A stretch of 64,000 nucleotides of DNA from positions 3,875,001-3,939,000 of the forward strand of contig NZ_CP067395.1 in the NCBI RefSeq assembly GCF_017355525.1, written 5' to 3'. Below the pieces are notes generated by a model. The model was not told where the DNA came from and made no database searches. It saw only the letters and a program-made list of their open reading frames with translations. A program made the position numbers and the translations under genes. The stretch comes from Lysobacter enzymogenes (GTDB lineage: Bacteria > Pseudomonadota > Gammaproteobacteria > Xanthomonadales > Xanthomonadaceae). Position 1 is the first letter of the stretch. Every line of letters begins with the position of its first letter. Shown here piece by piece: positions 44,999 to 63,894 of this stretch.

Positions 44999-45051
44999 TG
45001 CGCGCCCGCACCGTCAGTTGTGGATAACGCCGTGCGGCCGATCCGCGTCGG

Positions 45052-46209: not shown

Positions 46210-46373
46210 TGTGGATAAGACCGGCTACCCGGGCTGTGGACAACCGCTCAGGCAGATGAACGAGCGCGGGCTTATCGACAGCACTTATCCCCAACCCGCC
46301 CCGTTCAGGGAAACCCGCGCGCTGGTTCGCTTTGCGCGGGTTTACCCACATCGCTGACCACGAGTTATCCCCA
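46210..46373. other. Satellite cluster of DnaA-box-like 9-mers
   Basis: Exact TGTGGATAA at 46210 and TGTGGACAA at 46235, with near matches TTATCGACA 46272, TTATCCCCA 46285, TTACCCACA 46342 and TTATCCCCA 46365, all within 164 bases of the gap upstream of the radical SAM gene. Single exact boxes also occur at 45019-45027, 47422-47430 and 49661-49669. DnaA binding is inferred from the consensus TTWTNCACA. Confidence 0.6.
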
Positions 46374-47312: not shown

Positions 47313-47572
47313 GGGACTTCCTCCTTGAGATGGGAACCGGTGAGATCCACCAACGCGCGCCGGCTGCGGCCGGGGTTAGCGCGGCGATCGGCGGCGAAGC
47401 GGCAAGCATCGCGGCGCCTGTTGTGGATAACCTGCCATCCCCGACGCGGCCGCGCGCGAACCCCGCGCGTGCCGCACGCAGCGACCGCACGCACACTTTG
47501 CGCCGCAACCCGCGCGGGCTAGCCTAGCGCGGCGCCGGCCGCGGCCGCGCCACCTTCCGATGGAGCTTCGCC

Positions 47573-49625: not shown

Positions 49626-49734
49626 GTCCGCCGGATCCGGGCCGCCGGCCCGGCCGACGCTTGTCCACAGGCCGCATCCGCGGCGGCCAGATTGCGCACT
49701 CGCCGCCGGCTGCGGCGCACGCTAGGCTTTGGCC

Positions 49735-50490
49735 ATGACCGTCCTCAGCGTCAACGTCAACAAGATCGCGGTACTGCGCAATTCGCGCGGCGGGTCCGAG
49801 CCGGACGTGGTGCGCGCCGCGCGCGCCTGCCTCGACGCCGGCGCCCACGGCATCACCGTGCATCCGCGCCCCGACGCGCGCCACATCCGCGACTACGACG
49901 TGCTCGCGCTGGCCGAACTCGCGCACGCGCGCGGCGTCGAGTTCAACATCGAAGGCAATCCGTTCGCGCCGCCGCGCGCCGGCTACCCGGGCCTGCTCGA
50001 ACTGTGCCGCCAGGCGCGTCCGGCGCAGGCGACGCTGGTGCCCGACGGCGACGACCAGCTCACTTCCGACCACGGCTTCGACTTCGAACGCGACGCCGCC
50101 GCGCTGCGCCCGCGCATCGCCGAACTGGGCGAACTCGGCTGCCGCGTCAGCGTGTTCGCCGACGCCGACCGCGACGGCATCGAACGCGCCGCCGAACTCG
50201 GCGCGCAACGCGTCGAGTTGTACACAGGCCCGTTCGCCGAAGCCTTCGCCGCCGGCGACGCCGGCGCGGCGCTGGCCGAGTTCGCCGCCGCCGCGCGCCG
50301 CGCCCAGGCCGCCGGCCTGGGCGTCAACGCCGGGCACGACCTCAGCCAGGCCAACCTCGGCGCGTTCCTGCGCGCGGTGCCGAACGTGCTGGAAGTGTCG
50401 ATCGGCCACGCGCTGATCAGCGAGGCCTTGTACGACGGCCTCGATGCGACGGTCCGCGGGTATCTCGCGGCGATGGCCGGCGCTCGCTGA
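49735..50490 (+). CDS. pdxJ: Pyridoxine 5'-phosphate synthase
   Basis: A 251-residue cytosolic TIM-barrel enzyme that condenses 1-deoxyxylulose 5-phosphate with 3-amino-2-oxopropyl phosphate, the last step of de novo vitamin B6 synthesis. Motifs are intact: [17 protein letters not shown] at the start, [22 protein letters not shown], and [12 protein letters not shown] and [15 protein letters not shown] at the phosphate-binding end. ATG 49735 is chosen; a TTG two codons earlier is not needed. It is the gene left of the DnaA-box array, as expected from Xanthomonadaceae order (pdxJ next to exbD). Confidence 0.95.
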
Positions 50491-52423
50491 AACGCTTCGG
50501 CGGCGGCTGGATCGATCGGCCGCCGACGCGAGTCGGCTCGCATCCCGCAACTTATCCACCGCGCAGCGCTGCGTAGTTGGCGATGCGTTTTCGATTCGTA
50601 CCTGCGCGTGGATGCCGCCACGCTGTGGGTAAGTCCGCGTTCGGCGACGCGCAGCGTCGCGCTCACGAACGCTTCTGTGGACAAGTCGTTTCCGCGAAGG
50701 CGTCTGTGGATAGATGATGCCGCGCAGTCGGCGACGCACCCCGTCGACGACTGCGACAAGAACGACTTGTGGACAAGACTGCGCGGCATATTCGCAGAGT
50801 GCTGCGCATCAAGCGTTTCAACGGCGTCGCCCTGCAGTGTGCGAGCTGTGGACAAGCGCGCGGCCAGGACTCGATCGTCGGTGGTTCGCGGTTGCGCGTC
50901 TTGCGGCAGCGACAGACTGCATTCGACTGATCGCAGCGGCTTGTGGACAAGTATCGATAGCGCTTCCGGTGTACACCAGCGCGCGGCTTGCTTCGTCGTT
51001 CTATCCGCCGATGATCTGCACGGTCGTTGCGTCTGCTTCGATGCTGCCGGCATGCCGGCTGTGGACAAGTTCGAAGTACGCCGTGCGCGCGGTCTCGCGT
51101 GCGATCGCGGCGACTCGACCGGCATGGATCGCGCGGTCTGCGGATGATCGGCGCCACTGCCGCATCGATTCCGATCGCCTCGCGATGCGGCCTGTGGACA
51201 AGCTCGAGTCGCGCAGCATGCATGCCGCGCCGCGCGCGATCTCGGCCGTTCCATCAGCATCGACCACAGTTTTTTCGCCCTGCCTTCTTTGGATAATCCG
51301 CGTCGTCATCGCATCGGCGCCAAGGCCGCCGCGATGCGGCCAGGCAAGCGACTGTCGCTTGCAAGGCTGTGGACAAGTGCGCGGCGCGACGCACCGCGCA
51401 ACGAGAGCCGTCTCCATCGCCGTCACGACAGACTCGGACAAGTGTCCGCTGAGACTGCGATGAACCGCTCAGCGCAACGCCAGTAGCGACGCTGCGCCAG
51501 CGCACATGCGGCCCGGCCGGCTTGTGGACAAGTCTTGTCATAAGTGCTCGCGCGTACCGAGCGAAACCCGCGTTTTCCAGGCCTTTTTTGCGGGTCCGCA
51601 GCGATTGCGGATGCGGTGTGGACAACTGTTCGGACAGTTCACAAATCCGCCCCAGGCGAGATCGGCATGGCCCCGTGTTGCCTGCGACGGTAGCGAGCCA
51701 TCGATTGCGGACAATGCGCAGGCGCATCGTTTCGCCACACAGGGTCGAATGCATCGCACCCCCAGCCGTGGACGTCGGGCCGCCGAGCGCGGGTGTTCGT
51801 CGCAGCGACGTAGACAAGTCCACAGCGAGTCGCAGCGGTGCGCGCTTCCACGCGGTCCCGAAAATCGGGCGCAGCTCTGTGGACAATCAGATCTCGTAGC
51901 GGGCATCGAGCGTTGTCGCCGGGCCGTCGAAACGCATCGCTCTGGGGGTACGTCCATGCGCACAGGCTTGTGGGCAATTCGCACCGGTTGGTGGCGATCG
52001 AACGTTCCGCGCTGTACAGCACACCGCATCGCATCGCTCCGATATGCGACGCGGCGAGCCGACCTTCCGTTATCCACAACGCGGCGATGCCCGCTCGACG
52101 AAAAGTCCGATAGCGGTTATCCACATGCGTCCTCACGTTCGAAGCGGAGGCGCGAGGTACGCGCTTATCCACAGTCCGAATCACCCGCAGACCGCACCGA
52201 CGCTCTCCTCATCGCGCGGCTGTGGACAACATCCGCAGCGCTCACGCCGAGCCATTCGCGGATCGGCCGTGGCATCGCGTCGCATGCGCCCGGTACGAGC
52301 CCGCGACGCGGTCATGCCCGGCAGCAAAGCTTGTGGACAAGCCTCGCCGCACACGAAAACGGCCGCGTCTTCGGCGGCCGTCTCCGGTTCCACGTGGCGC
52401 CGCGCGTCGGGCGGCGAAGCGGT
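50491..52423. other. Gene-free DnaA-box array (candidate origin or DnaA-titration locus)
   Basis: Exact TGTGGACAA 9-mers start at 50676, 50768, 50847, 50942, 51060, 51193, 51368, 51523, 51617, 51878, 52221, 52332 and (just inside the flanking exbD) 52430. Exact TTATCCACA 9-mers start at 52070, 52117 and 52165. Near matches are TTATCCACC 50552, TGTGGGTAA 50624, TGTGGATAG 50705, TGCGGACAA 51706 and TGTGGGCAA 51969. Spacing is irregular (about 47-260 bases). By chance a given 9-mer is expected about 0.015 times here. Long open frames exist but lack start signals, domains and local codon usage. No strong AT-rich unwinding tract was seen; 51268-51300 and 51568-51595 are mildly T-rich. Confidence 0.8.
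52355..52381 (-). terminator. Rho-independent terminator of the third exbD gene
   Basis: ACGGCCGC (52359-52366) pairs perfectly with GCGGCCGT (52374-52381) around a seven-base loop; on the minus strand TTTTC follows. It lies 43 bases past the exbD stop, within the right edge of the DnaA-box array. Confidence 0.7.
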
Positions 52424-52831
52424 CTAGCGTGTGGACAAGTTGCGGATGCCGGCTTCGTCCGCGGCCGACAAGGCGTGAGCGAAGGCCTGGTAGTCGGCAT
52501 CGGCGTTCGCGCTCACCGTCAACACGGTGTCGGGACGGTCGGCGGCCAGCGCCGTCAGCGCCGCGGACAGCTGCGCGCGCGTCATCGGCCGGCCGTCGAG
52601 GACGAAGCTGCCGTCCTGGCGCACGTTCAATTCGGCCTTCGGGGCCTCCTTGACCGGATGCGGGTTGGGGGAGGGCAGGCTGAGCTTGAGCTGCCCGGTC
52701 AGCGCTGGCGCGGTCACCATGAAGATGATCAGCAACACCAGCATCACGTCGACCAGCGGGGTCACGTTGATCTCGGCGACGGTCTCGTTGCGGTACCGGC
52801 CTGACGAAGCGGAATACGCGGAAACGGCCAT
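52424..52831 (-). CDS. exbD: ExbD/TolR-family proton-channel subunit, third copy
   Basis: A 135-residue inner-membrane protein: short cytoplasmic tail, one span with the proton-path Asp in [20 protein letters not shown] (residues 20-39), then a periplasmic domain (SLPSPNPHPVKEAPKAELNV, then LTVSANADADYQAFAHALSA). It works with ExbB and TonB to energise outer-membrane receptors. It lies beyond the terminator at 53004, so it is probably expressed separately from the tonB-exbB-exbD-exbD unit. A DnaA-box 9-mer (52430-52438) is embedded in its last codons (LST). Confidence 0.92.
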   Translation of the reverse strand: MAVSAYSASSGRYRNETVAEINVTPLVDVMLVLLIIFMVTAPALTGQLKLSLPSPNPHPVKEAPKAELNVRQDGSFVLDGRPMTRAQLSAALTALAADRPDTVLTVSANADADYQAFAHALSAADEAGIRNLSTR

Positions 52832-62432: not shown

Positions 62433-62448
62433 TGTTCCACGTGGAACA
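62433..62448. other. parS site 1 (ParB-binding palindrome)
   Basis: TGTTCCACGTGGAACA is a perfect 16-base palindrome matching the universal parS pattern NGTTNCACGTGNAACN. It lies in the gap between recF and the DUF5694 gene. Half-sites GTTCCAC (62471, 62484) and GTGGAAC (62504) follow inside the recF 3' end. Confidence 0.92.
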
Positions 62449-63606: not shown

Positions 63607-63684
63607 GGGGGAATGATCGCAGATTGGCTAGGGCGGGGCGGGCGGGACGCAGCAAACGGGCCTGGCTAAACCGGTATGGGCTAC

Positions 63685-63848
63685 CTGTAGGAGCGGCGCG
63701 AGCCGCGACAACCGAAGCGATTGACGCTAGCGGAGCCGCCGAAGCCAAAGATCCGCCAGAACAAGGTTTTCCTAGCCACATCAGTCGCTTAGGCGACCTC
63801 GTGGTACCAAATTTCTTCGGTTGATCGCGGCTCGCGCCGCTCCTACAG
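63685..63848. repeat. REP pair between recF and dnaN
   Basis: Facing copies 63685-63710 (plus) and 63823-63848 (minus) of the TAGGAGCGGCGCGAGCCGCG variant lie in the 358-base gap 63607-63964. The gap also holds the dnaN terminator and parS site 4, and no gene. Confidence 0.8.
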
Positions 63849-63894
63849 GGCCCTCAGGAACCCGACGTAAGCAGCCGAACCTTCAGCCAGGCCC

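What the first reader, a model, noticed from the sequence alone, without database searches (positions are those of the whole stretch)
50491..52438. A 1.9 kb gene-free array of 16 exact DnaA-box 9-mers, 12 kb from dnaN
Thirteen exact TGTGGACAA and three exact TTATCCACA 9-mers plus at least five one-mismatch forms fill a stretch between pdxJ and exbD that has no credible gene. The 13 TGTGGACAA boxes all have one orientation; the three TTATCCACA boxes have the opposite one and are clustered at 47-48 base pitch (52070-52165). TTATCCACA and TTGTCCACA are both accepted DnaA boxes. E. coli datA is a known DnaA-titrating locus with far fewer boxes. This could be the chromosomal origin itself or an exceptionally large DnaA sink. 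Against the origin here: all genes from 52.4 to 64 kb run leftwards, as expected if replication starts to the right near dnaA, and no clear AT-rich unwinding element was seen.
Basis: partly seen in the sequence, partly recalled or inferred. Interest (0 to 1): 0.82.

Follow-up and report, generated by a model that had tools for sequence, protein, structure and literature searches.

The report
Giant DnaA-box array beside replication origin
A group of Lysobacter species carries an unusually large bank of likely binding sites for DnaA, the protein that starts chromosome copying, about 13-15 kb from the likely start point, where it probably soaks up DnaA and so helps time the copying.

Summary
In detail: 13 TGTGGACAA and 3 TTATCCACA in 1.9 kb (simulations: mean 0.009, maximum 1 in 3,000). 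The genome, a 5.95 Mb Lysobacter-type chromosome, has 56 exact boxes; 30 lie in 30 kb around dnaA, 16 of them in the array.
The array is probably not the origin. The dnaN-dnaA gap, 12.8-14.6 kb away, has an AT-rich block, an exact IHF consensus and an exact box pair in all 5 array-bearing genomes, and at least one exact box in 18 of 18 congeners examined. No array has the IHF consensus.
Five congeners, set apart by one tree split of support 1.000, carry 12-23 boxes in the interval; of 14 others, 13 have none and one has one. Spacers are almost unalignable (47-54% identity in 9 of 10 pairs; 43-45% with shuffled spacers) while nearby intergenic DNA is 61-91% identical. So box number, more than sequence, seems to be kept, as expected of a DnaA titration bank.
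DnaA binding and any effect on initiation are inferred. Verdict: new variant of a known kind, and a natural test case for initiator titration.

The parts
50491..52438 (.). DnaA-box array: pdxJ-exbD2 convergent intergenic interval plus the 3' end of exbD2; 16 exact TTRTCCACA boxes
50676..50684 (-). exact box TTGTCCACA
50768..50776 (-). exact box TTGTCCACA
50847..50855 (-). exact box TTGTCCACA
50942..50950 (-). exact box TTGTCCACA
51060..51068 (-). exact box TTGTCCACA
51193..51201 (-). exact box TTGTCCACA
51368..51376 (-). exact box TTGTCCACA
51523..51531 (-). exact box TTGTCCACA, part of the conserved core
51617..51625 (-). exact box TTGTCCACA, part of the conserved core
51878..51886 (-). exact box TTGTCCACA
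52070..52078 (+). exact box TTATCCACA
52117..52125 (+). exact box TTATCCACA
52165..52173 (+). exact box TTATCCACA
52221..52229 (-). exact box TTGTCCACA
52332..52340 (-). exact box TTGTCCACA
52430..52438 (-). exact box TTGTCCACA inside the 3' end of exbD2
51400..51640 (.). conserved core: two boxes 91-94 bp apart and adjoining sequence; BLAST finds it (149 bp or more) in the 5 array-bearing genomes only, among the 20 genus stretches and 80 pdxJ loci searched
50552..50560 (+). one-mismatch box TTATCCACC
50624..50632 (-). one-mismatch box TTACCCACA
50705..50713 (-). one-mismatch box CTATCCACA
51288..51296 (-). one-mismatch box TTATCCAAA
51706..51714 (-). one-mismatch box TTGTCCGCA
51969..51977 (-). 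one-mismatch box TTGCCCACA
52359..52381. GC-rich hairpin next to exbD2, perhaps the shared terminator of the convergent genes (inference from the sequence; the terminator scan did not list it); a similar hairpin stands there in the 5 aligned genomes
45019..45027 (-). outlying exact box TTATCCACA
46210..46218 (-). outlying exact box TTATCCACA
46235..46243 (-). outlying exact box TTGTCCACA
47422..47430 (-). outlying exact box TTATCCACA
49661..49669 (+). outlying exact box TTGTCCACA
49729..50490 (+). pdxJ, left flank, transcribed toward the array (gene name from the finding)
52424..52831 (-). exbD-type gene (called exbD2 here), right flank, transcribed toward the array (gene name from the finding)

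Best explanation
The stretch is a noncoding bank of high-affinity DnaA boxes beside, not at, the replication origin. DnaA is expected to bind the boxes one by one: 67 of 76 box-to-box spacings in five species are 50-260 bp, not the tight phasing of an orisome. Because the bank lies 12.8-14.6 kb from the boxes of the presumed dnaN-dnaA origin, it is copied very soon after initiation, so the number of high-affinity sites jumps at once, free DnaA falls, and re-initiation waits until enough DnaA has been made. This is the initiator-titration mechanism packed mostly into one locus. The bank sits in a convergent gene gap, where bound DnaA should disturb no promoter. Selection keeps the number of boxes while spacers turn over, in part through duplication of box units. 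Shown here: the boxes, their number, their distribution among congeners, fast-evolving spacers, and origin-like features elsewhere. Inferred: DnaA binding, titration, effect on timing, the reason for the place.
For: Enrichment far above chance. De novo 8-mer counts over the five intervals rank pieces of TTRTCCACA first (55 and 53 against 0.6 and 0.5 expected; largest count of any word in 50 simulations 24), and the commonest of 31 one-mismatch forms is TTATGCACA (6), which fits the published consensus TTWTNCACA (consensus in a passage of PMC5835720). TTATCCACA and TTGTCCACA stand for each other at the forward site of the dnaN-dnaA gap: A form in 7, G form in 6 of the 13 genomes with an exact box there, at 177-180 bp from dnaN in 12 and 199 in G003. 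The host DnaA domain IV aligns over 92 of 100 residues with entry 1j1v (DnaA; that it is E. coli domain IV with a DnaA box is recalled), the GRDHTTVLHACR stretch being identical. Five genomes keep 15, 23, 14, 13 and 12 exact boxes in the interval (77) although interval identity is 47-54% in 9 of 10 pairs and 66% in one, against 43-45% with shuffled spacers, 90-95% for pdxJ and 61-91% for four other gaps nearby. The five stand apart from 13 other congeners by a split of support 1.000 (unrooted tree). 30 of 56 genomic boxes lie in 30 kb around dnaA. SeqA was found in 0 of 20 congeners, with E. coli positive as control, so another brake on re-initiation is plausible.
Against: No binding data exist. 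Fourteen other congeners with the interval do without the array, so it is not needed in the genus. Hda is present in 20 of 20 congeners, so a nucleotide-switch brake exists anyway. Shared box positions exceed all 8 spacer-shuffled controls in 7 of 10 species pairs and not in 3. Orientation bias (73 of 77 boxes one way in the interval, 13 of 13 the other way between exbD2 and exbD1) is not predicted by simple titration, though duplication could produce it. In G015 the genome-wide count (58) is no higher than its reversed-pattern control (57). A review (PMC5295017 passages) reports that removing the B. subtilis clusters had a strong effect only when all six were gone, and elsewhere says that they play no significant role.
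Confidence: 0.6

Rival explanations
1. The array is the chromosomal origin, or an added second origin, of these species, with DnaA loading helicase there.
For: More exact boxes than the dnaN-dnaA gap. Cumulative GC skew has a local low near 51-52 kb in the window. A core with two boxes 91-94 bp apart is conserved in the five genomes, and in G017 and G019 the interval has a 60-bp stretch of GC 0.37-0.38. Box orientation flips across exbD2.
Against: The dnaN-dnaA gap keeps AT-rich DNA, an exact IHF consensus and the exact box pair in the same 5 genomes and is 81-91% identical among them. No low-GC stretch is shared by the arrays (lowest 60 bp 0.47-0.50 in G000, G005, G015). The lowest cumulative skew is at 24.9 kb, not at the array; a third-position change-point fit peaks at 92 kb and does not separate array from dnaN-dnaA (log-likelihood difference 0.36). 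The predicted genes from exbD2 to dnaA would all be read head-on to a fork leaving the array rightwards. Four parS-like sites lie at 62.4-63.9 kb, none in the array at up to 3 mismatches.
Confidence: 0.1
2. The array is a datA- or DARS-like locus that switches the nucleotide state of DnaA rather than only soaking it up.
For: Box clusters outside oriC with such roles exist in E. coli (passages of PMC4585315 and PMC5295017). The conserved core of two boxes with nearly fixed spacing could be the active part.
Against: No exact IHF consensus in 5 of 5 arrays (weaker sites not tested), while datA activity depends on an IHF site and its spacing to boxes (PMC4585315 passage). Box spacing differs between species, against a defined geometry, the core excepted.
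Confidence: 0.15
3. The 9-mers are sites of another protein, or a leftover of repeat expansion without function.
For: Some boxes of G017 lie in repeat units. The genome has other repeats with box-like pairs far from the origin.
Against: Spacers near noise identity with 12-23 exact boxes in each of 5 species are hard to explain without selection. The word matches the DnaA box, its commonest variant fits, and the same word stands in the dnaN-dnaA gap. No tandem array in the window copy.
Confidence: 0.1

Closest known systems
oriC-proximal DnaA-box clusters (DBCs) of Bacillus subtilis (Okumura 2012, paper not held; known through passages of the review PMC5295017)
   Same: Clusters of DnaA boxes outside oriC; removing all six caused early initiation, which fits titration.
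   Different: Six separate clusters there against one 16-box bank plus a 5-box group here; unrelated lineage; the review also doubts their importance. Not compared by sequence.
E. coli datA
   Same: Noncoding locus with several DnaA boxes; deletion causes over-initiation (PMC5295017 passage).
   Different: datA has 5 boxes and a required IHF site (PMC4585315, PMC5295017 passages); the array has 16 exact boxes and no exact IHF consensus. datA is far from oriC (recalled); the array is 12.8-14.6 kb from the dnaN-dnaA boxes.
Box enrichment around oriC in E. coli and Salmonella (PMC12371093; abstract, section 6 and search passages seen)
   Same: Boxes accumulate near oriC, proposed to favour titration.
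   Different: There a broad enrichment over several centisomes with a looser motif; here mostly one 1.9 kb bank of exact boxes. The paper reports preference for the lagging strand; here 73 of 77 interval boxes read along the leading strand if dnaN-dnaA is the origin (inference from orientation).
Streptomyces DnaA-box cluster (Smulczyk-Krawczyszyn 2006, paper not held; title seen in the reference list of PMC4585315)
   Same: A box cluster outside oriC involved in replication control (from the title).
   Different: Size, box type and place are recalled only; nothing compared here.

Membership tests
DnaA-box titration cluster (DBC-like) | many DnaA-box 9-mers above chance in noncoding DNA | tested here: met
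DnaA-box titration cluster (DBC-like) | apart from the origin but early-replicating | tested here: met
   12.8-14.6 kb from the boxes of the dnaN-dnaA gap; that this gap is the origin rests on comparison, not on experiment
DnaA-box titration cluster (DBC-like) | bound by DnaA in vivo | not testable with these tools
   needs ChIP-seq
DnaA-box titration cluster (DBC-like) | removal causes early or excess initiation | not testable with these tools
   needs a deletion strain
datA | IHF-binding site between DnaA boxes | tested here: not met
   no exact WATCAANNNNTTR in 5 of 5 arrays; weaker sites not tested
datA | stimulates DnaA-ATP hydrolysis | not testable with these tools
   biochemistry
oriC | AT-rich unwinding element beside boxes, shared among relatives | tested here: not met
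   lowest 60 bp GC 0.47-0.50 in 3 of 5, 0.37-0.38 in 2 of 5
oriC | conserved among congeners | tested here: not met
   14 other congeners with the interval have 0 (13) or 1 (one) exact box; N runs in G010 and G014 could hide some
oriC | GC-skew switch at the locus | tested here: inconclusive
oriC | autonomous replication | not testable with these tools
   needs an origin plasmid

The most novel reading that the evidence does not exclude
In these species the origin region is a distributed machine: a classical dnaN-dnaA origin flanked by two lineage-specific DnaA stations, the 16-box bank 12.8-14.6 kb on one side and a compact 5-box group about 10 kb on the other. The bank is selected mainly for its number of boxes, a natural DnaA counter that has replaced or strengthened other brakes on initiation; it may even fire as an auxiliary origin.
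Probability: 0.2. Interest if true: 0.8.

Novelty: new variant of a known kind. Interest (0 to 1): 0.6.

Why it matters
Whether bacteria time replication by titrating DnaA on chromosomal boxes has been debated for decades; PMC12371093 (abstract, section 6 and passages seen) says that experimental evidence was still lacking. Here evolution has set up the experiment: species of one genus with and without a large box bank near the origin, a bank whose best-kept property is its number of boxes. Deleting it, or comparing sister species, would test titration directly. No paper on a Lysobacter origin or array was seen in the listings (0 papers; 3 papers; 20 listed of 39; 10 listed of 178); searches for Xanthomonas campestris and Xylella oriC work gave 0 and 3 papers. 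The library lacks most subscription journals, so this is no proof of absence.

Tried and rejected
GC skew: plain and third-position analyses are too weak to place the origin at this resolution; the third-position fit peaked at window coordinate 92 kb, at neither candidate. Coding function: eight of the longer ORFs gave no Pfam match. RNA: no Rfam match near its gathering score. Mobile element: no match of the interval among plasmid or phage records. parS/ParB: four sites near recF and dnaN, none in the array. Tandem array in the window copy: none. A strict triple-box pattern over 198 family genomes hit only the window's own three TTATCCACA boxes, so counts were used instead.

Two statements in my notebook (entry) did not survive recount: the exact box pair is in 10 of 18 dnaN-dnaA gaps, not all 18 (at least one exact box in 18 of 18), and the congeners lacking the array are 14, not 13. 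The notebook's 9-box figure for the array of Stenotrophomonas sp. ATCM1_4 (entry) is 10.

G012 was not among the congeners counted genome-wide. The dnaA-yidC stretch (91-93% identical) is left out of the 61-91% range because at 0.9 kb it probably holds genes (recalled gene order); the exbD2-exbD1 gap, with coverage as low as 0.23, is kept in. Intervals of G010 and G014 hold 40 and 48 N: G010's single exact box lies in a repeated unit whose further copies are broken by N, so it may have a few more, and the low-GC value of G014 is an artefact of N.

Full report
Observation. Thirteen TGTGGACAA (reverse complement TTGTCCACA) and three TTATCCACA lie between 50676 and 52438; first-order simulations of the interval give 0.009 such words on average and never more than one in 3,000. 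The last box is in the 3' end of exbD2. Six one-mismatch forms lie among them. The window is bases 3875001-3939000 of a single-contig genome of 5,947,018 bp. In that genome TGTGGACAA occurs 32 times and TTATCCACA 24 times; reversed-pattern controls occur 18 and 8 times. So 16 of 56 boxes are in the array, and 30 of 56 lie in the 30 kb from 3920019 to 3950334 around dnaA, about 0.5% of the genome. That the genome is Lysobacter-type rests on its nearest pdxJ relatives; the species was not established.

Where the origin probably is. dnaN ends at window coordinate 65101 and the dnaA reading frame spans 65820-67274, outside the window. In the five array-bearing genomes the gap between them holds an AT-rich block (lowest 60 bp GC 0.32-0.35), an exact IHF consensus and a pair of exact boxes in opposite orientation 36 bp apart, each 5 of 5. 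Of 18 genomes of the genus whose gap was fetched, 18 have at least one exact box there and 10 have the exact pair; the forward box is TTATCCACA in 7 and TTGTCCACA in 6 of the 13 with an exact one, which shows inside the data that the two forms stand for each other at one origin-like site. Four parS-like sites (0-1 mismatch) lie at 62433, 62543, 63170 and 63933. GC skew is too weak here to decide: the lowest cumulative value is at 24.9 kb, the best third-position change point at 92 kb, and the array and the gap differ by 0.36 log units. The origin call is therefore comparative.

Distribution. Of 20 genomes of the genus, 19 have both flanks in the fetched stretch. G000, G005, G015, G019 and G017 have 15, 23, 14, 13 and 12 exact boxes in the pdxJ-exbD2 interval (1.9-2.3 kb). 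Of the other 14, thirteen have none and one (G010) has one; their intervals are 42-2,342 bp long, four of them under 50 bp, so in those four the absence says little. Intervals of G010 and G014 contain N runs that could hide boxes. A FastTree of gyrB, dnaN and recF DNA from 18 genomes separates the five from the other 13 with support 1.000 (unrooted); I call the five a clade on that basis. Genome-wide counts of TTRTCCACA are 48-64 in the five and 11-32 in the 14 other congeners counted. The reversed-pattern control is 19-27 in four of the five but 57 in G015, so for G015 the total alone shows no excess. In a sample of 198 family genomes, which held only G000 of the five, two exceed 40 boxes: G000 (56, control 26) and G047 (69, control 23). 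G047 has 29 boxes over about 80 kb on both sides of its dnaA, 13 of them outside predicted genes. Stenotrophomonas sp. ATCM1_4 (L086, G209) has 10 boxes in its own pdxJ-exbD interval; blastn against the window's interval finds only short matches (longest 23 bp, best E 0.03). Of 80 pdxJ loci, 62 had an exbD beside pdxJ: 57 of these had no exact box in the interval, five had 12, 10, 3, 3 and 1. Of the eight Stenotrophomonas loci among the 62, five have none, two have 3 and one has 10. An independent gain in ATCM1_4 is likely but no tree was made for it (inference).

Evolution. Identity of the aligned interval among the five is 47-54% in nine pairs and 66% in G017/G019. With shuffled spacers (8 shuffles a pair) it is 43-45%; pdxJ is 90-95% and four other gaps nearby are 61-91% identical. 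Yet each species keeps 12-23 exact 9-mers. Shared box positions exceed all eight shuffled controls in 7 of 10 pairs and not in 3, so positions are only partly kept. One 240-bp core with two boxes 91-94 bp apart is conserved in the five and was found in no other sequence searched. In G017 (L037) four boxes lie in 55-bp units and seven in units of about 100 bp, which suggests growth by duplication followed by decay of spacers. Orientation is biased: 73 of 77 interval boxes point one way, and 13 of 13 between exbD2 and exbD1 the other way. I have no firm explanation for this.

Identity of the binder. Among the 25 commonest 8-mers of the five intervals the leading ones are pieces of TTRTCCACA or its overlaps with flanks; the two other words clearly above expectation (13 against 1.7, 11 against 0.6) belong to the hairpin beside exbD2. 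TTATGCACA, 6 of 31 one-mismatch forms, fits TTWTNCACA (passage of PMC5835720); the next, TTATCCACT (5), does not. The host DnaA has a domain IV that aligns over 92 residues with entry 1j1v, including GRDHTTVLHACR.

Mechanism. 67 of 76 box spacings are 50-260 bp, median 94.5, so separate binding of many DnaA molecules is more likely than one filament (inference). Lying 12.8-14.6 kb from the boxes of the presumed origin, the bank should double within a minute or so of initiation at usual fork speeds (inference), the property that titration needs; PMC12371093 (section 6 read) argues the same for box enrichment near the E. coli origin. SeqA was found in 0 of 20 congeners (E. coli control positive), Hda in 20 of 20. 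A convergent gene gap is a place where bound DnaA should disturb no promoter (inference; the promoter scan of 50.4-52.9 kb found none). The clade also has a compact group of TTATCCACA upstream of an MFS-type gene, about 10 kb on the other side of the gap (3950169-3950334 in G000): five boxes in G000, G005, G015 and G019, three boxes (two TTATCCACA, one TTGTCCACA) in G017, none in G010, the only other congener whose stretch was compared.

Comparison. By what it probably does it resembles the B. subtilis DnaA-box clusters, whose joint removal caused early initiation, though the same review doubts their weight (PMC5295017 passages). It is not shown to be datA-like: the exact IHF consensus is missing. 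It fails two tested features of an origin. I file it as a new variant of a DnaA-box titration cluster, with binding and effect untested.

Noticed in passing
G000 3950169-3950334 (window coordinate about 75.2 kb; L027 15169-15334): Compact group of five TTATCCACA beside an AT-rich block upstream of an MFS-type gene; five boxes in G000, G005, G015 and G019, three in G017, none in G010. A candidate second regulatory or origin-like site.
   Followed up: partly
G000 5589783-5590544 (L035) and 5647157-5648366 (L036): Intergenic repeats with units 159-418 bp apart, alike over 108-111 nt, each with a box-like pair (TTGTCCACA with a nearby TGTGGAYAN); clusters of similar box layout are listed for G005, G001, G003 and G004, not compared by sequence.
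   Followed up: partly
G000 4446568-4446590 (L162): Inverted pair TTATCCACA-N5-TGTGGATAA in a gap between divergent genes; a pair with the same spacing appears in 11 of the 12 family genomes whose places are listed. Whether it is the same locus was not examined.
   Followed up: partly
window 62433, 62543, 63170, 63933: Four parS-like sites (0-1 mismatch) around recF and dnaN.
   Followed up: no
G047 contig 1, 23-102 kb (L153-L157): A family member with 29 exact DnaA boxes spread over about 80 kb around dnaA instead of one array, 16 of them inside predicted genes.
   Followed up: partly
L125 (G010) pdxJ-exbD interval: A non-array congener with one exact box in a repeated unit; the further copies are broken by N runs, so it may carry a small array of its own.
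   Followed up: no
window 50491-52423: GATC occurs 14 times where about 6 are expected from composition; 59 over the five intervals against about 33. Significance not tested.
   Followed up: no
window about 63680-63850, recF-dnaN gap: A short interspersed repeat: the query window:62400-64000 has 151 matches in the genome at E 0.001 or better, nearly all of the listed ones to this part.
   Followed up: no
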